Assembly: GCA_029582265.1 (NCBI GenBank)
Contig: CM055816.1
Location: forward strand, 38,138,466-38,202,465
From: Zoroaster sp. YZ-2022
Lineage: Eukaryota; Echinodermata; Asteroidea; Forcipulatida; Zoroasteridae
DNA length: 64,000 nucleotides
Reading direction: 5' to 3'
Part shown: piece after piece, positions 3,783 to 42,783 of the stretch
How the letters are laid out: each line of letters opens with the position of its first letter
How positions within the stretch are numbered: position 1 is the stretch's first letter
Position numbers and translations under genes: made by a program
The notes under the pieces: model-generated
Databases searched by the model: none
The model's input: only the letters and a program-made list of their open reading frames with translations
Told to the model about the DNA's origin: nothing

Positions 3783-6700
3783 TGATCGTAAGCAAAAGTG
3801 TATCTTCCGTCTTGTAAAATATATCTCTTTGTATCGAACCCATCCAACGTTGTGTTATTCACGGTCATCGTGAATAATCTAATACCCTTATTTCTAATAA
3901 AATTCATACAGTGATAAAGCGTTTTATTTTTGAATAAAACGTGTTTAAAATCCTCAAATATAATTTTCTTTTTCAATACTTGTTTTTTAACGCCCTTGGC
4001 CCTTTTTAGTTATTCTTTATCCGATAAAAGTATCGAGTACATTTTAGATCTTAAACCTACATATTCGGAGATCGGAGTTCCAGATGTCTCGTCTTTAAAC
4101 TTTCCGATGACCTTTTTATTCTCTTCCGAATACAAAAAATGATATTTTGAATAATTACTAAAATCGAATAAATCTTTGTCTTCTTCCATATCTTTATAAA
4201 CGTCTCTCGTTTGAATCTCCACCAACAAGCTGTCCGTATCCGTGTAAAGTAAATGACATTTTTCGTTGTATTTCTTTTTTAAATGATTGTAATAAAAATT
4301 GTACATGAAAGCTTTAGATAATTCCAATATACACATTCCAACGTATACGGGGCGGTTGAGTAGGAGTTTTGTTTTATGCATGTGTATAGCCGCTAAATCG
4401 AAATCAAAAATCTTCTGCTCGGCAAATGTTGGTTGAGCAATTGCTCTAACCATACGTTTCCCCTCATTTTCATCGTTTAATCTAAAGAGATTCACGTTAA
4501 CGTGATTTCGTATATTTTCCATCGTTTTTCCAAAAACATTATTCATGAGTTTGTACAAGTCTTTCTCAAAATCAGACTTTGCATTTTTTCTGAGTTGAGT
4601 ATTTAAATCGATGTATGATTTCATCCACGGTGATTCGTCAAATTCTAAAACACGATGAATTTTAGTTAGTTTCATACCGAGTTGTAAATACAGCTGTAAA
4701 TTTCTATAATGAAGAACGTATTTCGTTTTGTCGCCTAAATTACAAACTAATTTTTTAACGTTTGAAGCGGGTTTGTCACCCAATAGCTTCAGCTGATACG
4801 GCGACATCCATTGTTTTGGAATTTTCAATGATTCTGGCGCCAGTGGATAACCGTTGTGAGAATCGTGTAATTCTTTAGGATATTCTAAATCCACTTCTAA
4901 AATGTATCCTTTTCCATATTTGTATCCTTTTTTTCATTTGAGACTGTCAATTTGGTTTTTAGTCAACCATTTAAATTTACCCGTTGGAAGAAGTTGACTC
5001 ATCACCCAACCGTATAAATTATTCGCGTCTAAATACAAAACTCGAAGGTTTTGACGAATCGTAATCTGGTAAGAATTCGTTGTTTGCTTTTGCGTATCTC
5101 TGACTTACCATCGATATTCCTCCTCTCAAACATTTTTCTATAAATAAATATATGTCGTAATCCGTTAACAACTCTAAATTTATTTCTGAGTGTTTCAATA
5201 AAGCGTCCCAAATCAAGCCGGGACCCGTGTAATATTGAGCCGGATCCAACTTGTAGTGTTTTATACATGTTGTACGAAAACTTTCAAACACGTCCGCCAA
5301 TAACAAAGTATCAGTACGCACGTACAAATCGTGATAATCACCTAAATGTTTACATTGGAATATATTCCAAACGTTCTTTGCGTGCTCGTACTCTTCGTTT
5401 GTAATGTGCGAGTCGTTTAAACGACTATAACAAGCTTCTTTACAAGGAAGTTGAGTTTCTTCAAACCGTTCGAAACTGTCCATGTACTCGTAACAATAAA
5501 CGCCTTTCTTTAAAAGTAGCTTTAATTTTTCTAGATCTGATTCGTGTTATTTAGTAATGTGAAAATTCTTTTCATCGATCGATTTAACGAGCTTATCGAG
5601 CGAAGCGTTTAAAAATTGCATGCTATCGATAAAACGCAGTTGCCCGATTGAAAAAGAAATGTACTTTTCCATATTGTTAGGGATACAACTTAAATCTCCT
5701 TTTGTTTGCTGCTTGCATGATTAAACGAGAGTCGAATCCTCGTAAATTATGAAATACGACCGGGATAAACGTTTTGCCCGGTTTTAAACACAGTTTTAAA
5801 TTACATTTATTATGCGCTGCGCCTCTATATTTTCCGGTGACGTGACAATGATCTCTGACTTTTTCATAAGATTTCTTTAATCCTTCTACATTTTTACAAC
5901 ATTTACACGCAAAAATGCGTAGAATCTGTTCTACAAACCCAACAATAACACTCGTCGTCGTCGTTGGCGCGGTGAAAATAAATTTTTTCGCATATCCAAC
6001 ACTCGCTGGCGTTTTGAAAATTTTCTACATCGTCTTGCGTCATAATAATATCTTTAGGGTTTTAAAACATCTCGTTAATCTTTTTTACTTCTTCTTCCAA
6101 TGCATTTAAAAAGTGCTTGACGGTATCTTTACCCCTATATGTCTTGGGTAAGGATTCTTCACGATCGCATCGAACGACTTTGTACGAATAACCACAAGGG
6201 ATGTGTTCATTTTTTATTTCAGTATTGGTCGTACTCGCGTCGTTAGTCTCTGGAACTATAATCGTTTCAATGTCTGCGTATATAACAACAGGAACTTTCA
6301 TCTTTCTATTAAAATTTCGAAATTTTAATATATCGTTTTTACCCTTTTCTGGCATCTCGATACAAACCGCTCTGACGCCTATGCCCCTACACTCAACAAT
6401 GTGAACTTGAAGCAAATCTTCTCTACTGTAACCGTGCAAGCAACGATCGCAAAAGTGTTTACGTTCTTTATGTTTCGTTTGATCATAAAGTAATTTATTA
6501 AAAACAATTATCCAAATGTAGTGCGATTTAATTTCATCCTCTATTTCTTGATTTATCAATAATAAATTTATACGTTTTATTTCTTTGGGCTGATTACTAA
6601 TTTGAAAAGGTACGATCGATTTTCCTTCGCAACCAAAAACGTTTATGGCCAAATTGTTTTGTTTTTCAACTTTTCCGATCTGACTGATTGGCGTTGGAGC

Positions 6701-7129
6701 ATCGATCCCATCAAAATTTAATTTATATTTTTTCTTGTAACTAAACGTTTTATCCAAATGAGTTTTAGTGGGATAAAGAGCGGAACATAGCGCCCATCGC
6801 AAACAATTACCATCTTTGTTTTTTACGTTTATGCATGCCTTTTTGTTTTTCCAATAAGGTAAAAGATCGATAAAAGAACCGCCTCTAAAAGGTCTATATC
6901 TCGAAATTGTAATACTCATTGACATAAAACGATCTAACGCCCATCCGGAACCGTCCTTCCTACTTGTTTCTAAAACCTCGTTAATTTCATCAAAAGCCCT
7001 AGCTAATTCATCTTCGATATCGTTCATATTTAATAAAACTATTTGATTGTTATTATGAAAATGAATCTCTTGATATACAACCGTACCATCATCGCGAGTT
7101 CTACGCAATCGAAACTTAACATAAATCAT
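3749..7129 (-). pseudogene. Protein-primed family B DNA polymerase of the Polinton (PolB), broken
   Basis: The product would be about 1,100 residues, normal for Polinton PolB. In order: an N-terminal domain with KDGNCLRWALCSALYP; a C2H2-like HFCDRCLHGYS...H..EC; exonuclease motif I YADIETI (in 6062-7129); an HNH-like DHCHVTGKYRGAAHN (5819-5857); exonuclease motif II FHNLRGFDSRL (near 5740); palm motif A YLDANNLYGW (near 5010-5035); [13 protein letters not shown]; palm motif C YTDTDS (near 4230-4250); and the C-terminal tail to 3749. It would replicate the linear element from a terminal protein. Breaks: in-frame TAA at 6062-6064, stops or frame changes between 5490 and 5900, a frameshift near 5020-5035, TGA at 4934-4936 and TAA at 4010-4012. 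Confidence 0.93.
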
Positions 7130-7248
7130 AAACTTTATCTCTCCAAATTTGGCTTAACCGCATAAAAAAGGTAAAAATCTCTCTCTCTACTATCACCGTT
7201 CGGTACGGTCATCGTTCGCCGTCGTAAATACCTTCCGCCGTCAATGGG
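7130..7248. other. 5' flank of PolB, possible right end of the Polinton
   Basis: This 119-bp stretch lies between the PolB start and the TTC array. No terminal inverted repeat can be tested because the other end is outside the window. It is open on - as part of a chance frame that reads through the GAA repeats. Confidence 0.4.
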
Positions 7249-7422
7249 TTCTTCTTCTTCTTCTTCTTCTTCTTCTTCTTCTTCTTCTTCTTCTTCTTCT
7301 TCTTCTTCTTCTTCTTCTTCTTCTTCTTCTTCTTCTTCTTCTTCTTCTTCTTCTTCTTCTTCTTCTTCTTCTTCTTCTTCTTCTTCTTCTTCTTCTTCTT
7401 CTTCTTCTTCTTCTTCTTCTTC
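7249..7422. repeat. (TTC)58 microsatellite, 5' side of LINE
   Basis: Perfect, uninterrupted TTC repeats for 174 bp on the + strand. The array stops abruptly at the first base of the LINE 5' region (CTTGTAGGTCACG). It reads as poly-Ser on + and poly-Glu on -; neither is a real protein. Confidence 0.98.
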
Positions 7423-7632
7423 CTTGTAGGTCACGTTTTGATCGAGCTCCGGAGTAAGTAAGATTTTTGTAGCTTTTAGACCTTGTATGGTCACAGTTTT
7501 TATATTATCTTATTTAGTATTTATCATAGAACCTGCAAGACCATCCTCAAACTGTCGGGTTCTATAATTTTAGTGTATTTTACTGTAATTTCTCGTTTTA
7601 ATTTGGTTATTTTCGGCCTCTGGCTGGTCACC
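7423..7632 (+). other. LINE 5' untranslated region
   Basis: The sequence runs from the end of the TTC array to the first ORF1 ATG. A short imperfect repeat, CCTTGTAGGTCACG near 7422 and CCTTGTATGGTCACAG near 7482, may belong to an internal promoter. No TATA box is evident. Confidence 0.5.
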
Positions 7633-9214
7633 ATGACCAGTCAAGCATCACCAATTGAAAGGGGTCAGCCAAGCGTGAGCACGGCTGGCCCTGCGAAACC
7701 CATTGTTCAGGACATGAGTGAGCCTTATCGCGTCACCAGGAACAATGGCGTCTCTTTCAATGCTGCTGACAAGGTATCTGTACAAACATACGTAGACGCA
7801 TTTACTGCACATATACCCCAAAAGAAGTGATTTCGGCCTCCTGAATATCAAATGGCCGAATCGCAATCTACCTAAACTCGAGGGAGGCAGTAATCAACGC
7901 CGTTCAGAAAGGTTTAGTATACGGTGACTCCTTTCTTGAGCTCACTCCCCTCGTTCGCCCCACAACTCGTCTCATACTATCTAATGTTTATCCTGAAATA
8001 CCAAACTCGGTCCTTGTCAGCAACATTTCCTCTTTTGTAAAGTAGTGTCACAAGTTCGACCCATTCCCCTGGGATTCAAAAATAAAGAATTAACCCACAT
8101 TATGAGCTTCAGAAGACAGGTACAGGTTCTTTTAAATCCAAATATCATCCCTCCCGACCACATTAATTTCTCATTTTGCAATGTCAATTATCGTGTCTTT
8201 CTATCTACGGAGTCAGTGCGGTGTTTTAATTGCGGGGAGTTTGGACACATCAGCCGCTCCTGCAAAAAACACAAAAATTCCGATAAACATGACGAAAATG
8301 ATGACACAACCTCCAACCCCCTAAACCCACCACCGATCTTCGTGCACAATAAGAAATCAGACCCTAAACATCCTCCCAAACGGTCGAAACCCAACCCGCC
8401 CGATCCTGCTGCCGCTACGACTGCGCGTCCCGCGTCTGGACGGCCGGACGCGGGCTCAAGCGAGCCCGCGTCCGATGCGCCTGGCTCGGCCGCCGCCCGA
8501 TCTTCCATCGGGGGTGAGGTGCTGACCCGGGCGCCGTCTTCCTCCTCCGCTGGAAACTCCAAGGAGTCCTCGGCGGGGGCGGATGCGGGCGCGCCGAGTG
8601 GTAGCACAGATCGGGCCACCCCATCTCTCACGCCTGGTGCTTCCCCTTCCCAACCATCCACTCCAAATCCCACCAATAAACAATTCTCTGTATGGGGCTC
8701 GCCACCTGCACCCACGAGAAGTTTTTCTGATGTTGTTTCAAAAGGAAAACAGACACCCACAGCAACTTCTTCGACCCCCTCCAAAGTTCGCCTAATCACA
8801 CTAAAATCACCATCCCCACCCAGAAAACTTGCAAGGGTGTCGAGTCCCATGACGAGCAATTCCCCCTCCCTCTCCCAAGCTCTAGATTCCCAGACTCCTC
8901 TTTCCCCTACTCCATCCTCCACCGTCATGGAACAAAACACCGACACTGACTCCATGTGGGGGGATGATACTCAGACAGACGATGATCTCCTGGCTGAGCA
9001 TATTCCCATCTCCAAAGGCCCCCTCTCTGAAACTGAAATTATTAATTTCCTGTCTTCTGTAAAAGCTCGTAAATTACCTAAAATAGTTGCCAGAAAATTC
9101 ACTGGCAATATCCCCGGTCTAGTAAAACAATTAAAACCCTTACGTAACAATCCCCTGCTCAATAAAAACATGCAGCAGAGGATCCAGAAACTTGTAAAAA
9201 CTCTAAATAAATAA
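7633..9214 (+). pseudogene. LINE ORF1 protein (gag-like, CCHC zinc knuckle), frameshifted
   Basis: ORF1 of LINEs encodes an RNA-binding chaperone that packages element RNA. The first piece (from ATG 7633) stops at 7830. The frame then shifts and continues through LTPLVRPTTRLILSNVYPE to a stop near 8043. A third piece (8045-9214) contains the knuckle CFNCGEFGHISRSC (CX2CX4HX4C) at about 8221-8262. It is followed by a roughly 250-residue Pro/Ser/Ala/Thr-rich region and a basic C-terminus (KPLRNNPLLNKNMQQRIQKL). Total length is near 520 residues. The GC-rich middle (8380-8660) differs in composition from its surroundings. At least two breaks are present. Confidence 0.8.
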
Positions 9215-9257
9215 AAGTTGTCTCCTTTTCTGTCTTTCTATTCATTAGTGTATATCT

Positions 9258-12200
9258 TTGTTTTTCATTATGTGTGCCCATAACTCTGCTTTGTTTGCCC
9301 TTATGATGGCGCTGTCACTGCTCACCTTAAACACCGGAGGCTGTTCCGCTCCCACTCTGAACGCCTCCTTTCAAGCTTATGTGGAAACAATTATTTCTAA
9401 CCCAGATATTGTTCTTTTACAAGAAACGTACACGTTAAACGAAAAAAATACTTGCTGGAACTTGTGGTCCCACACCCCTTTTTGCTCCTGGCCCTACTCG
9501 AGGCTCGGAGTCACTACTTTAAACAAAAATAATAATATTAATATTCTTTCTTCTTGTGCCGTTTTTGATGGCTATATTTTGTACTCAAAATTAACTTTGA
9601 AAACATTACTTATCATATTTATAATACTTTAATTCCGCAGAATGACCAAAATGCCATTAATGCTATTATTTCCCTTCGGGACCACTGTTCCAGCTGCGGT
9701 GACGGTGTCATCATAATTGGAGGTGACTTTAATTGTACCGATAACCCGGCCATTGATCGTCTGTGTATGCCCATCGAACGCCGATATAAAGTGTCCATGG
9801 CTCTAAAAGACGCTGTCAATGGATTGTCTCTTTATGATGCCTGGCGCAGACTGAACCCATTAGAAAAAAAAATTCACCTGGCTTAGAAACAATCCCTCCA
9901 GCGTGTGTGGCGTTTCGAAATCCAGGCTGGATCGTTTTTACGTTCATTCTAGTATTATGTCATCCATTCAAACATGTCGTATTGTTCCCTGTTCTTTGTC
10001 CGACCACTCTGCGGTCACCCTTGTTATTAAACTCCCCTCCCAAAATCGGAAGGGCAGCGCCTATTGGCATTTTAATAACTCTCTACTTGATGATAAATAT
10101 TATTGTAATATTATAACGCAATTTTGGACAGATTGGAAAGCGAAAAAGTGCGACTTCCCTAGTCTCGCTTCTTGGTGGGACTTCGGGAAGTCACACATTA
10201 AATCTTTAAGCCAAATGTACGGCTCCAAAATCGCCAACGAAAAACGAATATCTTTTCTAGAATTAAACCAACAAATTGATGAACTTCAGTCTGCGCCAGA
10301 CTTAACGCCTCAAACTAGAGATACTCTTGCCGAACAAAGAAACAATTTAAATTATCTTCTCAAAACTGAAGCACAGGGCGCTCTCGTCAGATCTCGTTTT
10401 AAACATACAAATGAGACTGACTCGTGCTCCACGTATTTCTTCAATCTTGAGAAATCAAATCTCTCTCTAAAATATTTCTCATATCCGTCTCCCTTCTGGT
10501 CTTGTCTCCGAAGACCCAGGTGATATAAAAGCGCATATCCGCGAATTTTATAAAACACTTTATAGCCGAGTTCCAACTGACGAGAGTGCCCTCGATTACT
10601 TATTAACTGATGTAACTAAACTAGACTCCGGTGATGCAGAGGACCTTGATAGTCCTCTGTCTCTCGAAGAACTTAACCTCGCTGTCAAGCAACTTGGCAA
10701 AGACAAAACCCCGGCTTGACGGACTCACATCCGAATTTTTCTCTTTTTTCTGGCCTTTATTAAAAGATGACTTTCTTTCAGTTCTGCAATCTTCTATATG
10801 TTCTGGGTCTTTACCTCATTCTTTTCGTAGAGCTGTCATCACTCTGCTTCCTAAGAAGGGAGACTTGGCCGACATCGCAAATTGGCGCCCTGTCTCCCTT
10901 CTAAACACCGATTATAAAATCTTTGCCAAGTTGCTTGCCAACAGGCTGAAACAATCCATTGGCAGCGTCATCAAAGAAGACCAAAGTTATTGCGTCCCAG
11001 GACGTTCGATTTATGATAACATTAATCTCATTCGAGACATAATTTTCTACTCCAACTCAAATGACGTTCCTCTAGCCGTGATCAACCTTGATCAGAAGAA
11101 AGCCTTCGATAATGTTGATCACGGCTATCTTTTTAATACAATGAGAGCCATGGGCTTCGGTGCTCGTTTTATTTCTTATCTACAAATCTTGTGCAGGGGT
11201 GCCGAGAGCCTTGTAAAGTTTAGCTCCTGACTGTCCCCTTTTCATTTGAAAGGGATACGTCAGGATGCCCACTCAGGCCTACTTTATACAATCGCTATCG
11301 AGCCTTTACTCAACGTCTTAAGAACAAAATTAATTAATGTTAGTTTTCATCTCCCGAGCACTGAATTTTCGTGCGCCGTGTCGGCATACGCAGACGACGT
11401 GTCCATTTTCGTCACCTCCGATTCGGGCTTCAAAGAGGTGGAAGAGGCGTATAGCCTCTTCAGTCGGGCCTCTGCTGCACGTTTAAACACACAAAAGTCC
11501 CAGGGTCTGTGGGCCGGCTCCTGGACCAGACGAAACGACAAACCACTAAATTTCTCCTGGAATAGTGAGGGGCTTCCCTTTCTAGGGGTTCACTTAGGAA
11601 ACACAAACAATTACTTTAAACAAAACTGGGAGAAATGTAAAGACAAATTAAATAAAACTCTCTCTTCTTGGTCTAGACTTTCCGCTTCACTTTCATTCAA
11701 GGGTAAAATTATCATAGCTAATCAGCTCGCCGCTTCTAAAATTTTTCACTGTTTGGCTGTTCTCTCCCCTCCGGAAAATGTCCTAAGTGAACTCCAGAAC
11801 ATTCTTGTCGATTTCGTCTGGTCTAATAAACGACACTACTTAAAAAAACAAGTTCTCTTTCAAAAACCCGACAGGGGAGGGATGGGTCTTGCATGCCTCC
11901 AAGCACGCATTCTCACTTTTAGATTCACCACCATCCAGCGTTTTCTTAACCTATGCTCCCATCCCGCCTTTTTTCTCGTCAGTCATTTTCTCAAACAATA
12001 TAAAAAACTTGGGTTTGATTACCAGCTCTTCCTTTCGAAAACTGATCCTAAATTTTATACCAGTCTCCCCGTTTATTACAGTGAGATTTTGCGTGCTTGG
12101 ACGGCGTCCGGAGCTCGCATCGAAACGCAACCAGTCTCTATCAACCATGTCCTAAATTTACCCTTAAATAGCCAATTTGCTAGTTTTACAGCTGATGGTG

Positions 12201-13105
12201 ATGCGTCTCCTCCGGTGCGGCTTACGGCGTGCGGGATCAAACTCGTTCGTCATCTCCTGGATTTCAACACCGGCCGTTGGATCGACCCCCGAACTTTCCA
12301 CGCTTCTTTTCAAGGACTTCGTCCTCCATCTCTACGTCTTCTACAATCCGACCTTCGGCGTCAACATCTGACATAAATACAAAACATTACTCTGCTTCTC
12401 CACGAAGAGGGATGTCGTCTGCCTTTTTCTCAACTTCAAAACATCTCCTTTCGTCCCGACTCTCCAGTCATCTTCAATTTACCTGTGACTGAAAATGGAC
12501 TCTCCGCACCATCCAAAAATCTCTACGTTATTTTCAACAAAGGAATCAACTCTGAATCTTCTTCTTCGTCTACACACTGGAAAAATATTGGCTTTCTCGA
12601 CTCTTCAACTAAACTTCAATGGGAACAAGTCTATCAACTACCAACTTCTAAAAAGGAGGGTGACGTACAGTTTAAACTGTTTCATAATTTTCTACCCTCC
12701 CTTGCCGTCCTCCATCATCTAAATCCGGACATCTCTTCTTCCTGCGGATGGTGCGGAGAGAAGGGGTCGATCCATCATCTATTTATTTTGTGCCCAGCAA
12801 TACAGCCCGCCCTCAGTCTTCTACATTCACTCCTCAATCGTCTTCTGCCGTCTCTTCAACTCAACTTTGACATCTACTGGGCACTGATTCCGCACGCTAA
12901 AGGTCGCAGCAGGGAGGCAGTTCGCCTTGCCAATTTCCTCATCATCAGTTGTAAAAACATAATTTACTATTTATATAGGACATCCCGTTTTTCGGACCCT
13001 CTTATCATCTGGCAGCATCGGCTGAAAATAAAATCCTCCTTGAATTTACCTATTATAATTTATGCAACGACCTTAATACTTTTCTTAAAAATGGTCCTGC
13101 AATAA
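9258..13105 (+). pseudogene. LINE ORF2 protein (AP endonuclease + reverse transcriptase), frameshifted
   Basis: ORF2 nicks the target and copies the element RNA. The endonuclease spans about 9310-10010, with LLTLNTGG near its start, IIGGDFNCTDNPA near 9715, and SRLDRFYVHSS...CSLSDHSAVTL near 9915-10025. The RT spans about 10700-11700, with LPKKGDLADIANWRPVSLLN, EDQSYCVPGRSIYDNINLI, INLDQKKAF and SAYADDVSIFV. The C-terminal piece (12485-13105) has a Cys/His motif, CGWCGEKGSIHHLFILC, typical of L1/Tx1 ORF2. Breaks lie near 9630, 9885, 10525, 10718, 11228 (in a region that should encode the conserved RQG..S.LLY motif) and 12376. Most look like single-base slips. Confidence 0.88.
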
Positions 13106-13679
13106 TGCCCTTTTACTTTTTGATAATGATATTTTGACATGGTTGATCTAATCTGACCCTCTCGGTCCACCTTTCCTGTTTCGACCCACCTTGTGAACAG
13201 CTACTCCAATCTCTCTCTGATTGGAGGCAAGGTCTCTGCCACTGTTCACGAGTGGGGTCCTCTCTCTTTCCTTTCCTTTTCCTTTCCTTTCTTTCTCTTT
13301 GGGAGCCGCTGGAGTGGGTTCATGACCCACACCAGTAATGCCAGTGGCTCCCAACACCAGGGATCCTCGGGGGAGTCTGCTTGCACCATGGTGTTTGTAG
13401 TCTCCCTTATAGAGGAGCCCTTTCCCTTTCTTCCTTTCTTCCTTTCTTCATCAACCTTTGTTTATTGTCGATGATTTATAAATGTATTTTTGTTTTTGCA
13501 TTTACAAATGTTTTATTGTTATTACTTGTGTTAACAATGTAAACCGAATCTAGTTTTTATTACAGTAATATTGTATACTACTAATTTTGGTTAAACATTG
13601 TTTACTATTCTTTTATTTGTACATTTTGTATTGTTGTCTGTTTTGTAAATAAAGTTTTCTTTTGAAAAGTCAAAAAAAG
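13106..13679 (+). other. LINE 3' untranslated region
   Basis: 574 bp from the ORF2 stop to the TTC array. It contains a TTTCC/TTTCTT-rich stretch (13265-13310 and 13425-13450), a palindromic TGGGTTCATGACCCA near 13316, and an AATAAAG signal near 13646. The last bases are GTCAAAAAAAG, directly joined to TCTTCTTC. There is no long poly(A). Confidence 0.75.
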
Positions 13680-13751
13680 TCTTCTTCTTCTTCTTCTTCT
13701 TCTTCTTCTTCTTCTTCTTCTTCTTCTTCTTCTTCTTCTTCTTCTTCTTTG

Positions 13752-13782
<31 letters not shown>

Positions 13783-13918
13783 CTTCTTCTTCTTCTTCTT
13801 CTTCTTCTTCTTCTTCTTCTTCTTCTTCTTCTTCTTCTTCTTCTTCTTCTTCTTCTTCTTCTTCTTCTTCTTCTTCTTCTTCTTCTTCTTCTTCTTCTTC
13901 TTCTTCTTCTTCTTCTTC
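13680..13918. repeat. (TTC)n microsatellite, 3' side of LINE
   Basis: 239 bp of TTC repeats on +, interrupted once by TTTGAC at about 13748-13753. Same repeat, same strand and similar length as the array at the LINE 5' end, as expected if one array was split by the insertion. Confidence 0.97.
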
Positions 13919-16331
<2,413 letters not shown>

Positions 16332-17500: not shown

Positions 17501-18859
17501 ATTAATATATTAAATTTCTGGTAGTGACACCAAGCATTACCTTATGTGTGTGAGAATCTCATTGCTTTGTCACTTGCACTTTTTTGAGGTTTATTGACAT
17601 TCATGCATGTGTGATTGTCATGCATGTGAGACTGGTATATTAACACTGCAAATGTTTTAGGGTTTAATACGCGATCTGTGGTGGAATAGGCCTATGGAAT
17701 GGTTATCTCTTGCAAAAGTTCTAAGTGCGGAGTGATGATTGGTTATTCAATGTGAAGCACTTGCGTCCGGAAACGTTCACTTCATGCACGTGGGGCAAAA
17801 TTTCCCGGGTCTTATGATCACGTGTGATTGCTTTGAGAGGGGATGGATAATATACATGTAATATTGGAAGTTGTCGTTTTCAAGTGAAGTGTTTATCTAA
17901 AACGCATGACAAACAGTTATCTTTCGGTGCTCCCATTGAGGAAGGATATACTGACAGTTGTAATGTAAGGTTACATTTAAAAGATCTTTAACCCTAACCT
18001 TCCCAAATCCTCCAAAATCCTCTTTGCTAAAGTGAAGGTTACATTTAAAAGATCTTTAAACAACATCGACATGTTGGACTATTTCCTTTAGCGCAACTAA
18101 ATGAAAGTTTCAGCGTACGTTGTGCCGTTACCGAAAAAATAATGAAAACGATTCATAATGTTGTTTTGTTCCAATGTGCAATTTAGGAAAAGGTACTCTT
18201 TTACAAGTAGTTTTTTCCACTTTTCTTAAAAATTACAACACCTCGGACAAATTAATGTATCTCTGAGAAAAATTCATACCATTATAATCGTTACCCTATT
18301 TAATTATTTTCAAATTGGCAATAATGTAACTTACCTTTAATGGTCTGGGCCAAATGTCCTGCCTCTGAACAGGGAATTCCAAACTAACAATCATAATTTT
18401 CTGTTTACAGGTTTATTAGCTGAAATTCCTTGCTAACCCTTCAAATAAATACTCTTACGGTATTAAGCAACAAATGTTCTGGGCCATTTTATTTCGTATT
18501 CTGGACACATGCAACAAAATACACAGCGAAATCAAGTTTTTTGTTCAGGGGCGAAATCCCAGAAGGGGGAGGGTGGTCCATAAGATGACCAGAATATTTC
18601 ATGCGGTAAAAAACCTAAATAATAAGCAAATAATTCGTGAAAATTTAGCAAATTCTTGAAACTTTGGTTTGTTTCAAACAATATTGTTTCTTTGTCCGTT
18701 TGGGTGTCGTCTTTGTTACAGCTGTCAGATTCTGATTACTGTACGGTACTCCATTGTACACAAAGGTCAGTTTCCTTCCCCCACACTTTTCGACATGGAT
18801 TTACGCCACTGGTTTCGTTCATTTTGTTTCATTCTTTAATTTGGTTTGCACATTTCCAG
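17501..18859. other. Non-coding stretch upstream of the receptor exons
   Basis: No exon could be identified. TAACCCTAACCTTCCCAAATCCTCC with a following CTCTTTGCTAAAGTGAAGG (17990-18040) matches, inverted, the repeat at 40015-40075. The first exon (signal peptide) of the adhesion GPCR is expected here or further upstream but was not found. Confidence 0.5.
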
Positions 18860-19585
18860 CCAGGATGTATTGGTGGTCCCTTGGTGAAGGCGACACCAGT
18901 GAAAGTGATGAGTTCTGCAGCCTGACTGATTTCACCGATGGAAGGTTGATATCCATTGACTACGGTGAACTACTTAACCATCTACATATGATACCCGCCC
19001 CGGATGTTGTTGAAGAAACCTGTGCAGTTATGACATGCTCAATGTATTTTATCGACCTTGGGAATTACGATGGCACATGTATATCTGACCCGATGTTCTG
19101 CATGTCAGGAGGGTTCACATGGTCAGTCTGGCTCAACATACGTTCTATTTTGACAAATAATATGCTTAACAGTATAATAAACTCTGGCAATTATGGTCAC
19201 TACAAGTCTAATTTCAATCTCTGGATCACAGAGGATATGAATTATCTCTATTGCTCGGCTTATAATAATAACACCATAATTTCAACGGGCATCAACATCA
19301 TCGATAGCCATTTCAAGTGGATACACATTGCATGCGTATTCGACTTTTCTATTGCAGCAGATAACGGTACTGCCAAAGCATACATCAATGGCGCTGGGAT
19401 CGAAGGAAAATACCTTGAACATTTCAATGAAGAATATGCAACTTCTAAAGAACTTTATGTCTACAGTAATATGAGTCTTGGTGATGCAACAGTGTATTTT
19501 TATGTAGGCTTCAGCAACTTAGTGTTGACGGATGGTATCCTAGGTGATGACGAAATTGAGCACGTCTACTCATGTGGATCAATGG
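18860..19585 (+). CDS. Adhesion GPCR exon: LamG/pentraxin-like domain
   Basis: Acceptor TTTCCAG before 18860 and donor ATGG|GTGAGT after 19585; phase 1 to 1, 242 codons. The core contains FIDLGNYDGTC, DPMFCMSGGFTWSVWLN, INSGNY, FKWIHIACVFDF and AKAYINGAGI, the order of a concanavalin-like LamG sandwich as found in adhesion GPCR ectodomains. Paired Cys around GTCISDPMFC are typical. The ATG 18754 that opens the same frame lies upstream of the acceptor and is probably intronic. Confidence 0.85.
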
Positions 19586-22500
19586 GTGAGTGATGATTTT
19601 GTAAGCATGAAGTTCTCAAACAAAATTGTTCGTTGAAAGTTTGAAGAAAGTAGATATTAAGTAGATATATTTTTGTTTGTTTGTTTGTTAGACGTTTGGT
19701 TGGGGAGAAGTTGACAATTTCACTGGTTAGTTTTTAAAAATGGGGTCAACTAAGGCAATATGGTTCATTCAAGAAAATTGGATCCCTCTGGTACGTTGTG
19801 TTGTAATCCGTTATTATTATTTTATGCAAGCGCAATAACGCAATACCGCATCACTACCACGGGATCCATCTTCTCATGATCCGTATTTCATCAGCTTACC
19901 CGTTGTGTGACTTAGATCACCGCTTGAGGGCGCTATAACCAACTTTTATGTGTTTTTTCCAAAATTACGATTTTAAAGATTTTTACCCAAATTTCCGAAT
20001 AACCTTTAACAACTCATGAAAATTATATAAAAAGTTAGATATTGCAATTAAACGTAATGGCGGCCATATTTGATTCCCAGAATGCATTTAATGTTGTCCA
20101 GTTGAGACTGTTTGAAAGTTGAAAGCATACCTAAAAAATAATAATGTCTTACAGTATCAAAAATCAAGTATTTAAAATTGAAATTCAATTGGACCTGTTC
20201 AAAATAAAGAGATGCCATGACAACCATAAACACCTAGTATCGTTGATTTTGGCATGAGTGAGTCCCAAAGAATAGTTCTGATAGGGTTAAAACGATTCCC
20301 CTTTCAAAATGGGTTTCCACTGTCCCAGTGGCTACGTGTAAATGCAAACTAAATCGTTTGCTCAGAGCTGTAAGGACTTATACACACTTGATGACAATTT
20401 TATCTGTTTAATGACAACAGGTCTTATAAGATTAATTAACTGTAATTACCTAATTAAGTACAAGATGATGGGTCTTGAGTGCTGAATATAAATTGTGAGT
20501 ACTCCCATTGTTAAATAACATAAATTCAAATAATTAAGTTTGAATCTTAAATTTTTGGAGAAGTTTAAGCTTTCAAGTTCAGTGTTCTTAACGTAATTTG
20601 ATCATCACCGTTTTCCTCAAGTGACGAATCGGCCCACACAGCTGCAAATCCATGTTTTGAGATAATCGCCTTTGAAGTTGAACTGTTTTTGAAATCGCAA
20701 TTTCAAAGACTTTTCAGAATTAATTATTTTAGATTTTGCATCCTACTAAAGCTAATAACTTTAATTACAAAGAAAATTAATATCGGTATCTTTATAGTCG
20801 AGATTGTAATTGACGGGGAATTACTTTCTAAACATATTCGTCACTTCGTGAAAACGCAAAAACAAGACTGCGCGTGCAGAGCGCTGTATTAAACAACGTA
20901 TTAAGTGATTCGTCACTTCGTGAAAATGCTAAACGTATATTGGTCACACGATTCGTCACTTCGTGAAAACGCAAAATCATCAATACCTGCTTTGGCATTA
21001 TGCCAATTGCTAATGGCGATTCGTTACTTCGTGAAAACGGAAAACAGCTGAGCTAAGTGATTCACCGGGTATATTAATAGCGTAATTCTGAAACTAGAAC
21101 GTTTCAACACTTGAGAAATGTCGGCGACAATGAATTACACCTCAAATGCCTACAAAACTGAATTTGACACTGAATTTTTATGGATTCGTGACGTTATAAG
21201 TCCTTTCTGCTAAACACGACGAATTGCTTAAACTGTTTTCATTCACCATGGCAGATTGGAATCCCAAAGTTCGTCGTCTCAACCACGTATCAGCCGGAGT
21301 CAACCAATCAAATATTCAGTTCCAGTGCACAGCTAGTGACGTCACTGGCCCGACTGTGGTATGGCGCGTCTACCAATCGAAATGCAGCGTTTGGAGGTAT
21401 TTGCGCAATGAAACGGAGAATGGTATACGCATTGAGAAGCGTGCCGTGTCATCATGCGTCGCAACGTCTACCTTGACGATTTTGAATTATCGGGAACGAG
21501 GTTACGAGGGTTCAGTCATCGTGTGTTCAACCTCCAGTCAAGGGAGTCCATCAAATCATTCTGCTAACTTCACTATCCCAGGTAGGTTTGTGTTCGTTTG
21601 TTGCTAATTGTGGACACCGTGACATTATGATGATAACCCCAAAACGGTTGATCATAGCAGATCGTCCAATACCAACGATTAATTACAATTTGACCCAAAC
21701 CTTTCATAAACCGGCCAGTTATCACTTCTTTCAAAAAAGATAATATGTAACACAATACAGTAACAATGCAATTTACAACATATTCAGTATGATTTTTATG
21801 AATATATATTATAATGAGTTTGTTTTAATATATAGGTATAGGATGAATTACCAGGTTAGCAAGGCCTCACCGTTTTCACGAAGTGACGAATCGGCCCACA
21901 CTGCTGCAAATCCATGTTTTGAGATAATCGCCTTTGAAGTTGAACTGTTTCTGAAATCGCAATTTCAAAAAATGTTCAGTTCCTACTAAAAGCCAATAAC
22001 TTTAATTACAAAGAAATGTCAGTATCTTTATCATAGAAATTAATAGGAAATTACTTTCCAAACATATTTGTCACTTCGTGAAAACACGAAAAAGAAGACC
22101 GCGCGTGCAGAGCGCTGTATATTAAACGCTAAACGTATAATAGGTCACACAATTCGTCACTTTGGCATTTCGCCAATCATTCCAACGTATAATGTGGCGA
22201 ATGGCGATTCGTCACTTTGTGAAAACGGAAAAGAGCTGAGCTAAGTGATTCGCCGGGTATATTAATAGTGTAATTACGACTTTTGAACACTTTAGTGAAA
22301 CTTAGCAGAAATGTCGGTGACAATGAATACATCTCAAATATCTACAAAACTGAATTTGACCAAAAATTTGTTGTATTGATTTATATGTTTTACCTTGAAA
22401 TCGTTGACATGCACAGAGGAAATTCCAGTTGAGCATACGACTTCCTTAGCAAGCACCAATCCCCAAGAACCCAATGAGCATGTAGACGGTGACTCCATAC

Positions 22501-31355: not shown

Positions 31356-31443
31356 GTAAGCTCTACAGTTTGAATTATGGCTTACACCAAATAATAATGA
31401 CAGGTATACTATGGTTGTTATAAACCGTCTTATGCAGTCCCAC

Positions 31444-31943
31444 NNNNNNNNNNNNNNNNNNNNNNNNNNNNNNNNNNNNNNNNNNNNNNNNNNNNNNNNN
31501 NNNNNNNNNNNNNNNNNNNNNNNNNNNNNNNNNNNNNNNNNNNNNNNNNNNNNNNNNNNNNNNNNNNNNNNNNNNNNNNNNNNNNNNNNNNNNNNNNNNN
31601 NNNNNNNNNNNNNNNNNNNNNNNNNNNNNNNNNNNNNNNNNNNNNNNNNNNNNNNNNNNNNNNNNNNNNNNNNNNNNNNNNNNNNNNNNNNNNNNNNNNN
31701 NNNNNNNNNNNNNNNNNNNNNNNNNNNNNNNNNNNNNNNNNNNNNNNNNNNNNNNNNNNNNNNNNNNNNNNNNNNNNNNNNNNNNNNNNNNNNNNNNNNN
31801 NNNNNNNNNNNNNNNNNNNNNNNNNNNNNNNNNNNNNNNNNNNNNNNNNNNNNNNNNNNNNNNNNNNNNNNNNNNNNNNNNNNNNNNNNNNNNNNNNNNN
31901 NNNNNNNNNNNNNNNNNNNNNNNNNNNNNNNNNNNNNNNNNNN
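31444..31943. other. Assembly gap (500 N)
   Basis: Exactly 500 N, a fixed-size placeholder. The true length and order are unknown. Translations across it are meaningless. Confidence 1.
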
Positions 31944-32060
31944 TTTATATTGATACAGCTTCTTCAGTTGACTGTACAATTACATGTATACTGATCTTGA
32001 ACATGTTGTTGGTACATGTATTAAGTCTAACTACTTTCCTCAGAGGAATAAGGGACAATT

Positions 32061-40782: not shown

Positions 40783-41300
40783 GAATCATTGCACTTGGGT
40801 TTTGAAGGTTCTATTATATCTATTATATCTATTATATGTTCACAATGGAAAGTTACCTGATTTTAAAATTACAGAATTATTATGTGAAGTTGGTAATGGT
40901 ATATTTCCTTTAAAAACAATGTTCCAGCTTATTATGAAGATCGAGGTTCCACTTATAGTACTCGTAATCATACACTATGTACATTTTACTTCTGCATACT
41001 TGAATACAACTCAAGAACTGAAGTACTCATACCCGTACTCTCACCCATTTCCTGCGCCTAGATTATTGTGAAGTAGATCCCACTACACTATTCTGAACAC
41101 CCTCCTCATTGTGATTCTCAAATACATGTGTACAAGATGACCACTGTGTATGTATTAAATGGTCTACTGTACATGTCGGCATAAATTCAAAATAACAAGG
41201 ACAATAAAATTACGGGCGTAATTCCATGTCTACTGTACATTTACATACAAATTAACAGTGACAATGATCATATGGGCGTAATTCCATTAGGGAAGTATGA

Positions 41301-41517
41301 CCCCCGTCTGTCCCACCCCCGTCTGTCCCACCCCCCGTCTGTCCCACCCCCCGTCTGTCCCACCCCCCGTCTGTCCCACCCCCCGTCTGTCCCACCCCCG
41401 TCTGTCCCACCCCCCGTCTGTCCCACCCCCGTCTGTCCCACCCCCGTCTGTCCCACCCCCGTCTGTCCCACCCCCGTCTGTCCCACCCCCGTCTGTCCCA
41501 CCCCCGTCTGTCCCTCC
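41301..41517. repeat. CCCCCGTCTGTCCCAC minisatellite, 15-16-bp unit
   Basis: About 14 units; unit length alternates 15/16 bp by the number of C. It is open as Pro- or Gly-rich frames in several phases, which is an artefact. Confidence 0.95.
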
Positions 41518-42389
41518 CCCCACACTTTTTGAGCTAAAACAAAACTCATACAACAACCTCCCAAGCTACACGTAGGCGCATTTTATAATGTTTCAAACAA
41601 TGATTTTAGACTACCATTATTTCCCAATTTCACAAAATTTTCAATAATTTTTACACACTTGTTTATATTTTTGTTTCATGAATGCTCCCAATACTACATG
41701 TATGTTTTCCCAATTCTATGTTGTTTTTTGGGTTACAATGAAAATCATTATTTGACAGTTTGGTGATAAAAACCTGTTAAAACCTGTCAACTGGGAGAAA
41801 ACAGAAATGTGGGATCAGGAAAACAGATGTATTGAATTAAGCAAGCTCAAAAAAATCCGAGCAAGACAACTGCACCTGTAAATAAGTTGTATAATGTTAA
41901 CCAGTTCGCGTCAGAGGCCGTGTATACACGCAATTTTTTTTTGCACCACGGATCGGAGAGCGTCTAAACACGCCACAGGAAACTCCTATATATTTGTATG
42001 CATGCTCGGTTGAGCCACGCGTGTACGGTGACATGCTCGGAAGACGTGGCCACGAGCTGTGGAAGCTTCCATTAACGTGTGTGTGGGAAAAAGAAACCCG
42101 CACAGGGGCCCAGAAAAACTTTTTTATTCCCGACGCGAACTGGTTAATTACATGTACATGTACATGTACATGTAGTAATGACATACAATACAACATTTAA
42201 GAGAATCCGTGAACTGTGTGATCTACAGGGTTAATATTAGCCTTTAGTCAAAGTACACATTGCAATCCTGAACAACACAACAACCTATAATAAGATCCCA
42301 CACGTTCCGAGGAGGCTACTGCTGATTTATTCATAAACCTCCAGCAAATGTATGCAAATTTATTTAAACCAATCAGTGTAAGCAAAATG

Positions 42390-42656: not shown

Positions 42657-42783
42657 GTCTCGACTGAGGTCTCGACTGAGGTCTCGACTGAGGTCTCGAC
42701 TGAGGTCTCGACTGAGGTCTCGACTGAGGTCTCGACTGAGGTCTCGACTGAGGTCTCGACTGAGGTCTCGACTGAGGTCTCGG
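42657..42783. repeat. GTCTCGACTGAG minisatellite, 12-bp unit
   Basis: About ten perfect copies, then a diverged GTCTCGGACTTTGAAGTCTTGACT. Open as Ser/Arg/Thr-rich frames on -, an artefact. Confidence 0.96.

What the first reader, a model, noticed from the sequence alone, without database searches (positions are those of the whole stretch)
7249..13918. LINE inserted in a (TTC)n array: probable microsatellite-targeting Tx1-type element
Seen: a 6.26-kb LINE whose first base abuts 58 perfect TTC units and whose last base abuts 239 bp of TTC, on the same strand. Known: some Tx1-clade LINEs use fixed targets, and from memory the lineage called Koshi was described as specific for (TTC)n. Inference: this copy entered a TTC array by target-specific retrotransposition. 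The RT and C-terminal Cys/His motif agree with Tx1/L1.
Basis: partly seen in the sequence, partly recalled or inferred. Interest (0 to 1): 0.8.

Follow-up and report, generated by a model that had tools for sequence, protein, structure and literature searches.

The report
Jumping gene that targets TTC repeats
This is a broken copy of a LINE retrotransposon (a copy-and-paste jumping gene) whose relatives in the same animal genome nearly always sit in simple TTC-type repeats, so the family does seem to choose such repeats as its home; the kind is known, but this branch of it and its crowded landing sites look new.

Summary
In detail: a 6,257-bp LINE (7423-13679, +) lies between (TTC)58 (7249-7422) and a 239-bp TTC array (13680-13918). 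Of 41 copies found with the 3' UTR (best-scoring 40 of 535 candidates), 40 have a 3' end facing a pyrimidine tract, 29 of them TTC or TTC-rich; 36 of 41 have at least 90% pyrimidine in the next 60 nt, against about 0.1% of control positions. Of 36 near-complete 5' ends, 34 abut a pyrimidine array; of 15 truncated ones only 5 do. Two (TTTC)n copies have TTTC on both sides, so the array is the target, not the tail. The reverse transcriptase groups with Xenopus Tx1 and outside L1 anchors, on a branch separate from the vertebrate Tx1 elements. Families B and D and a 3' end E end in the same motif, TTGAAAAGTC-A(n)-GTC, also facing TTC. Families stack in one array, and part of the arrays lie in Helentron-like repeats. 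A known kind; branch, breadth of target and two-layer landing site look new.

The parts
7249..7422 (+). 5' half of the target: 58 perfect TTC units
   Evidence: TRF, 100% matches; the only TTC arrays of six or more units in the window are those flanking the element
7423..13679 (+). LINE copy (family A), 6,257 bp; 41 copies found with its 3' UTR in the same genome at 86-100% identity (40 of 535 candidates scored)
7997..9214 (+). open part of ORF1, 405 aa, with a CCHC zinc knuckle (about 8219-8269); the part before it is in other frames
   Evidence: Pfam zf-CCHC E 5.3e-6; frames
9249..13105 (+). broken ORF2: endonuclease part (Exo_endo_phos match at 9321-9599, below its cut-off), reverse transcriptase (RVT_1 at 10850-11167 and 11273-11596), C-terminal CCHC-type motif (12743-12793); frame changes near 9570-9630, 9864-9886, 10490-10520 and 10700, stops at 11228 and 12374
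   Evidence: best solved relative is LINE-1 ORF2 protein
13200..13420 (+). strongly folded part of the 3' UTR (several hairpins predicted)
   Evidence: MFE -91 kcal/mol, z -4.69 against 200 shuffles; role inferred only
13648..13681 (+). 3'-terminal motif AATAAA...TTGAAAAGTC-A7-GTC, shared with families B and D and the 3' end E; the last TC could equally belong to the array
13680..13918 (+). 3' half of the target: TTC x22, TTTGAC, TTC x55

Best explanation
A degenerate copy of a young, target-specific LINE of the Tx1 clade (in the wide sense). Shown: the copies read sit almost always in pyrimidine microsatellites, mostly (TTC)n, with the pyrimidine strand as the sense strand, and the 3' end is mostly ...GAAAAGTC-A(2-9)-GTC joined to the array. 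Inferred: its APE-type endonuclease nicks the purine strand (GAA)n, the freed 3' end primes reverse transcription on an RNA that ends in GUC (a 2-nt UC/GA match is possible), and the second strand is finished as in target-primed reverse transcription. Related families in this genome use the same target and the same end, and part of the arrays seem to be carried by Helentron-like repeats.
For: 3' side: 29 of 41 copies face TTC or TTC-rich arrays, 4 (TTTC)n, 3 TCC/TTC mixes, 3 (one duplicated locus) irregular pyrimidine, 1 a T run then TTC, 1 no array. 36 of 41 have >=90% pyrimidine in 60 nt; controls 88 of 111,502 window positions and 50 of 47,355 distal-flank positions. 5' side: of 36 copies that start at base 1-15, 29 abut TTC, 5 other pyrimidine arrays, 2 none; 32 of 36 have >=90% pyrimidine in 60 nt. 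In the window plus L009-L028, 15 of 21 loci show arrays on both sides: 11 TTC/TTC and 2 TTTC/TTTC agree exactly, L012 (TTCCTC/TCC) and L027 (TTC/TCC+TTC) are mixed; a fixed tail would not change with the site. Not one amplified locus: 18 clusters among 36 usable 3' flanks and 32 among 47 usable 5' flanks at 80% identity over 50 nt. 31 of 41 3' ends read A(n)GTC. RT trees. Recent activity: median pairwise identity 97.7% among 12 long copies, best pair 99.0%.
Against: Ten of 15 5'-truncated copies have no array directly at their 5' edge; later insertions are likely for some (L010, L016) but proved for none; one of the ten, L021, has (TTC)86 24 nt away. L040 has no array on its 3' side, and its 5' region (L077) gave no clean junction. 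L026, nearly complete, has no array on its 5' side. The array-less L040 and the irregular L041, L042, L045 are among the 8 of 41 copies at 86-88% identity, so the rule is cleanest in the young copies. Target-site duplications cannot be read inside arrays. Only 40 of 535 (3' query) and 40 of 283 (5' query) candidates were scored, best first. Flanks of a non-targeted LINE of this genome were not available as a control. Nick and priming were not tested.
Confidence: 0.87

Rival explanations
1. The 3' TTC array is the element's own tail (as in LINEs that end in simple repeats) and the 5' array is chance or an older neighbour's tail; there is no target choice.
For: All but one of the 41 family A copies, and the ends of B, D and E that were seen, meet a TTC-type tract; three 5' arrays do follow another 3' end of this kind (L018, L057, L064).
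Against: 3' arrays differ between copies (TTC, TTTC, TCC mixes). Where both sides were seen in the window plus L009-L028, 13 of 15 pairs agree exactly, among them two TTTC/TTTC, and two are mixed. 34 of 36 near-complete copies have an array on the 5' side, in 32 clusters of flanks (47 usable).
Confidence: 0.05
2. Insertion is not sequence-specific: copies elsewhere were lost, and those in harmless microsatellites remain.
For: Selection against insertions in genes is real in general (established knowledge); microsatellites are safe sites.
Against: Pyrimidine 60-mers are about 0.1% of control positions, yet 36 of 41 copies face one, with the pyrimidine strand as the sense strand. All 33 copies with 90% or more identity to the window's 3' UTR face a pyrimidine tract, so the pattern is there before old copies were sorted.
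Confidence: 0.04
3. The copies spread mainly by duplication of arrays or of Helentron-like repeats that already held the LINE, not by retrotransposition into arrays.
For: Groups of loci share flanks: L021/L027, L041/L042/L045, L059/L061/L069, L017/L066/L068, L018/L029, L030/L031 and others.
Against: 18 clusters among 36 usable 3' flanks and 32 among 47 usable 5' flanks remain (threshold 80% over 50 nt, so remote duplicates could be missed), and 3' joins differ in A-run length and GTC number.
Confidence: 0.06

Closest known systems
Tx1 of Xenopus laevis (YTX2_XENLA, P0161)
   Same: APE-type endonuclease, RT with AYADD, C-terminal CCHC-type motif; same clade with 100/98 support. That Tx1 has a fixed target, inside another transposon, is recalled.
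   Different: Separate, well-supported branch; the target here is a pyrimidine microsatellite.
Koshi and Kibi of fish (Kojima & Fujiwara 2004, paper not held; (TTC)n for Koshi is recalled)
   Same: Microsatellite-specific Tx1-clade LINEs.
   Different: No labelled Koshi sequence could be placed. The Tetraodon and Danio pol-like proteins (P0149, P0139), which may be of that set, fall in the vertebrate branch. Here the target also includes (TTTC)n and TCC mixes.
Unnamed ORF2 proteins P0001-P0026 (mostly from 'ena' contigs of 4.2 to 98 kb)
   Same: 49-66% identity over the query's residues 380-1268; the 17 of them put in the large tree share a branch with the window (SH-aLRT 99), the 10 put in the careful tree likewise (100/99).
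   Different: Host and flanks unknown; one scan of viral contigs found no relative.
L1 (PDB LINE-1 ORF2 protein; fish and frog anchors P0100, P0104)
   Same: Same enzyme order; best solved relative.
   Different: The RT lies outside the L1 anchors; P0100 and P0104 score 608 and 527 bits to PDB LINE-1 ORF2 against 282 for the intact relative P0002 and 263 for Tx1.

Membership tests
Tx1 clade of LINEs (wide sense) | RT groups with Tx1 and apart from L1 | tested here: met
   Clade of 24 rows with Xenopus Tx1 and the window at 100/98, L1 anchors outside; within it the window's branch and the vertebrate branch are separate, and the grouping of all rows outside the window's branch is weak (88/86)
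Tx1 clade of LINEs (wide sense) | APE-type endonuclease in ORF2 | tested here: met
   In the window the Pfam match is below cut-off (20.6 vs 24.5); the intact relatives P0001-P0010 carry PF03372
Tx1 clade of LINEs (wide sense) | ORF1 with CCHC knuckle (feature recalled) | tested here: met
   zf-CCHC, 26.7 bits, cut-off 20.8
Tx1 clade of LINEs (wide sense) | fixed kind of target (true of many, not all members) | tested here: met
   40 of 41 3' ends and 34 of 36 near-complete 5' ends in pyrimidine tracts
Koshi | RT within the fish Koshi branch | tested here: inconclusive
   No labelled Koshi sequence; Tetraodon pol-like P0149 falls in the other branch
Koshi | (TTC)n target (recalled for Koshi) | tested here: inconclusive
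   29 of 41 3' flanks TTC or TTC-rich, 12 of 41 otherwise
L1 clade | RT groups with L1 | tested here: not met
HINE / non-autonomous Helentron (for the surrounding repeat) | microsatellite, spacer, satellite-like repeats, 3' palindrome in this order | tested here: inconclusive
   spacer or about 149-bp repeat in 13 of 40 3' flanks probed, palindrome-like or satellite pieces in 12 of 48 5' flanks, some on the other strand; order as in PMC7492417 (passages seen); no whole element was delimited and no Helentron protein sought

The most novel reading that the evidence does not exclude
An old branch of the Tx1 clade, separate from the vertebrate Tx1 elements, is as a whole specialised on pyrimidine microsatellites through one shared RNA 3' end (GAAAAGUC-A(n)-GUC), and it lives on a second mobile element: Helentron-like repeats that spread TTC arrays serve as portable landing pads in which several LINE families stack head to tail. 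If fish Koshi lies in the vertebrate branch, choice of (TTC)n is either very old or arose twice.
Probability: 0.35. Interest if true: 0.65.

Novelty: new variant of a known kind. Interest (0 to 1): 0.5.

Why it matters
Few LINEs with an APE-type endonuclease are known to choose a microsatellite. Here one genome offers dozens of copies, many of them young, several families with a shared 3' end, and natural target variants (TTC, TTTC, TCC mixes). That makes two open questions testable: what part of the endonuclease reads a simple repeat, and how an RNA end is matched to its target. It also suggests how a microsatellite parasite keeps finding sites: other mobile elements carry them.

Tried and rejected
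Tail rather than target: rejected because arrays vary between copies and the two TTTC copies with both sides seen have TTTC on both. L1 membership: rejected by the RT trees. Relatives in viral contigs: one scan, 26 pattern matches, none a relative. Clean junction of the array-less copy L040 and of the L042 group: the 5' regions fetched (L077, L078) gave no array and no readable duplication. Tally of families B and D by genome search: not completed. Literature: seven paper searches listed no account that I recognised of this branch; I read passages only, and Kojima & Fujiwara 2004 is not held. Repbase, where an entry may exist, could not be searched. In one search family C was dropped from the tree because my script kept too little of it. 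The polB-like frames gave no Pfam match.

Full report
OBSERVATION. The window holds a LINE at 7423-13679 (+) that starts right after (TTC)58 (7249-7422) and ends at a 239-bp TTC array (13680-13918) broken once by TTTGAC. No other TTC or GAA array of six or more units is in the 64 kb. The copy is dead: of ORF1 only 7997-9214 is open, and ORF2 changes frame at least four times and has stops at 11228 and 12374. Pfam sees zf-CCHC, Exo_endo_phos and zf-RVT (both below cut-off) and RVT_1. The best solved relative of the first RT piece is LINE-1 ORF2 protein, then R2.

COPIES IN THE OWN GENOME. The window is part of a 1.0-Gb assembly of 616 contigs. The 3' UTR (13100-13650) gave 42 rows, that is 41 copies (one row is a fragment of another copy) at 86-100% identity; only 40 of 535 candidates were scored. 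I fetched 10 kb around 20 copies and about 460 bp at the 3' end of the other 19 loci; with the window and a second copy in L016 all 41 were read at the 3' end. The 5' end (7423-7950) gave 40 places, 40 of 283 candidates scored; 27 new 5' flanks were fetched and two longer stretches later.

3' JUNCTIONS (41 of 41 read). 28 copies meet TTC directly and L029 a TTC-rich array; L014, L016a, L025 and L033 meet (TTTC)n; L012, L027 and L038 meet TCC/TTC mixes; L041, L042 and L045 (one duplicated locus) meet irregular pyrimidine; L039 meets a T run and then TTC; L040 meets no array. In the first 60 nt 36 of 41 have at least 90% pyrimidine; the other five are L011, L028, L033 and L043, whose arrays are short, and L040. 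Controls: 88 of 111,502 positions of the window (both strands; the LINE with its arrays and the ACA array left out) and 50 of 47,355 positions in distal flanks (sense strand). The control is for position; flanks of another LINE family could not be had. All 33 copies with 90% or more identity face a pyrimidine tract; L040 and the irregular L041, L042, L045 are among the 8 at 86-88%.

5' JUNCTIONS (51 read). Of 36 that start at element base 1-15, 29 abut TTC, 5 other pyrimidine arrays and 2 none by the script (L026; and L056, which has (TTC)4 followed by TTA). Of 15 that are cut further in, 3 abut TTC, 2 TTTC and 10 no array. Of these ten, L021 has (TTC)86 24 nt away; L065 abuts the palindrome piece after which TTC arrays are seen elsewhere; L010 and L016 have one and the same other repeat as neighbour; L016b looks like a copy broken by a repeat that carries (TTTC)n; the others are unexplained. 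They are the main evidence against strict targeting.

TARGET OR TAIL. In the window plus L009-L028, 15 of 21 loci have arrays on both sides: 11 TTC/TTC, L014 and L025 TTTC/TTTC, L012 TTCCTC/TCC, L027 TTC and TCC+TTC. 13 of 15 agree exactly and two are mixed. A tail made by the element would not follow the site, so the array was there before. Shared flanks show that the loci are not all independent: at 80% identity over 50 nt there are 18 clusters among 36 usable of 40 3' flanks (13 fall in one cluster because of a shared satellite repeat, 4 in another because of family B) and 32 clusters among 47 usable of 48 5' flanks.

3' END. 31 of 41 copies read A(n)GTC at the junction, n between 2 and 9, a few with one C or T in the run; seven of these 31 read GTCGTC (L026 three times GTC). 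L041, L042 and L045 read GGTC, L044 GTTGTC, L016a GTA; L021 joins at the first GTC without A run; L036 and L039 lack the G; L037 and L047 lack the end motif. The G occurs also where the array is (TTTC)n, which holds none, so it is not from the target. Families B, C and D, met next to family A, are 63-69% identical to it where compared. B (L076) ends AATAAAGTTTCAGTTGAAAAGTCAAAAAGTC before TTC, D (L018, L064) AATAAAGTTCCAGTTGAAAAGTCCAAAAAGTC(C) or a close variant; a further 3' end, E (L057), reads AATAAAGTAACCTTTTGAAAAGTCAAAAAGTC. E is known by its end only and may be that of family C, whose own end lies in an assembly gap. The last 30-33 nt are 79-94% identical between A, B, D and E, the 80 nt before them 54-65%. 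I infer an RNA that ends in GUC and is recognised by its end. The 3' UTR before it is strongly folded (z -4.69).

FAMILIES STACK. Downstream of A in the same array, same strand, family B begins in L013, L022, L026 and L028 and family C in L023; upstream of A, family D ends in L018 and L064 and E in L057. That is 5 of 41 3' flanks, of which only those of 21 loci were read beyond 400 bp, and 3 of 51 5' flanks, read over a few hundred bases. A duplicated A-B block is not excluded for the four B cases; their 5' sides read differently.

CARRIER OF THE ARRAYS. A spacer or an about 149-bp tandem repeat lies beyond the array in 13 of 40 3' flanks probed (L009, L011, L012, L015, L017, L020, L024, L034, L040, L041, L042, L045, L046), and palindrome-like or satellite pieces lie before it in 12 of 48 5' flanks, in a few on the other strand. 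The same probes find nothing in the window. The order palindrome, microsatellite, spacer, satellite is like that of HINE elements (non-autonomous Helentrons) of the Pacific oyster (PMC7492417, passages seen). L014, L048 and L074 show a second hairpin repeat with (TTTC)n. This makes mobile repeats a likely source of landing sites; it is an inference, as no whole carrier was delimited.

KINSHIP. Homologues of ORF2 reach 66% identity in unnamed proteins; the named ones are mostly fish. A profile search brought in Xenopus Tx1 (P0161) and pol-like proteins of Danio (P0139) and Tetraodon (P0149); it listed 120 of 454 hits. In the careful RT tree (31 rows, 481 columns) the window and Tx1 share a clade of 24 rows (100/98) that leaves the L1 anchors out; inside it the window lies in a branch of 11 rows (100/99) and Tx1 with the fish proteins in one of 9 (100/99), while the grouping of the remaining rows with the latter is weak (88/86). 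The quick tree of 53 rows agrees. The anchors are L1 by score to PDB LINE-1 ORF2: 608 and 527 bits, against 282 for P0002 and 263 for Tx1; a further group (P0181, P0184, P0202) with 400 bits for P0184 lies between them and the Tx1 clade. Families B and D fall on other twigs of the window's branch (14 rows, 100/99). So the TTC habit is seen on two sides of this branch within one genome.

MECHANISM. Shown: choice of array, orientation, 3' end. Inferred: nick on the purine strand by the APE-type endonuclease, priming of reverse transcription on the RNA end, 5' truncation of part of the copies. Age: median identity 97.7% between 12 long copies, best 99.0%.

KNOWN OR NEW. Microsatellite-specific Tx1 LINEs are known (Kojima & Fujiwara 2004; not held, recalled; its title is seen in reference lists). 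KOSHITN1 is named as a fish element in PMC2684134 (passages); that it is from Tetraodon is read from the name. Passages seen of PMC10294476 (molluscs) and PMC11203168 (gastropods) count Tx1 elements and name no target. In some searches I saw no listing that describes this branch with its target, the shared 3' end or the Helentron-like carrier; Repbase was out of reach.

Noticed in passing
window 4010-7153: Frames on the minus strand that look like a type B DNA polymerase of a Polinton-like element (motif recalled; no Pfam match); the open frame next to the LINE ends about 95 bp from the TTC array.
   Followed up: partly
window 15533-16331: About 800-bp (ACA)n array, 95% matches, 1.6 kb right of the LINE's 3' array; its edges were not examined for an element.
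   Followed up: no
window 42657-42782: Perfect 12-bp minisatellite GTCTCGACTGAG, 10.5 copies.
   Followed up: no
window 41300-41520: 15-bp minisatellite ACCCCCGTCTGTCCC, 14.4 copies.
   Followed up: no
window 18736-19593: Open frame of 285 aa with a Laminin_G_3 domain; one relative, unnamed, 74% identity.
   Followed up: partly
L009, L011, L012, L017, L020, L024 downstream of the array: About 149-bp tandem satellite next to pyrimidine arrays, probably the core of a Helentron-like repeat.
   Followed up: partly
L013, L022, L026, L028: A second Tx1-type family starts in the same TTC array right after family A in four loci; duplication of an A-B block not excluded.
   Followed up: partly
L010 and L016, 5' side: Both truncated copies have the same other repeat as neighbour; its reverse strand resembles a GIY-YIG part of a Penelope-like element (recalled, not searched).
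   Followed up: no
L014, L048, L074: Hairpin repeat ATATCAGCCCTGCGAAGCAGGCTGATAT (read in L014) next to (TTTC)n arrays used as targets.
   Followed up: no
window about 31400-31950: Run of N, presumably an assembly gap.
   Followed up: no
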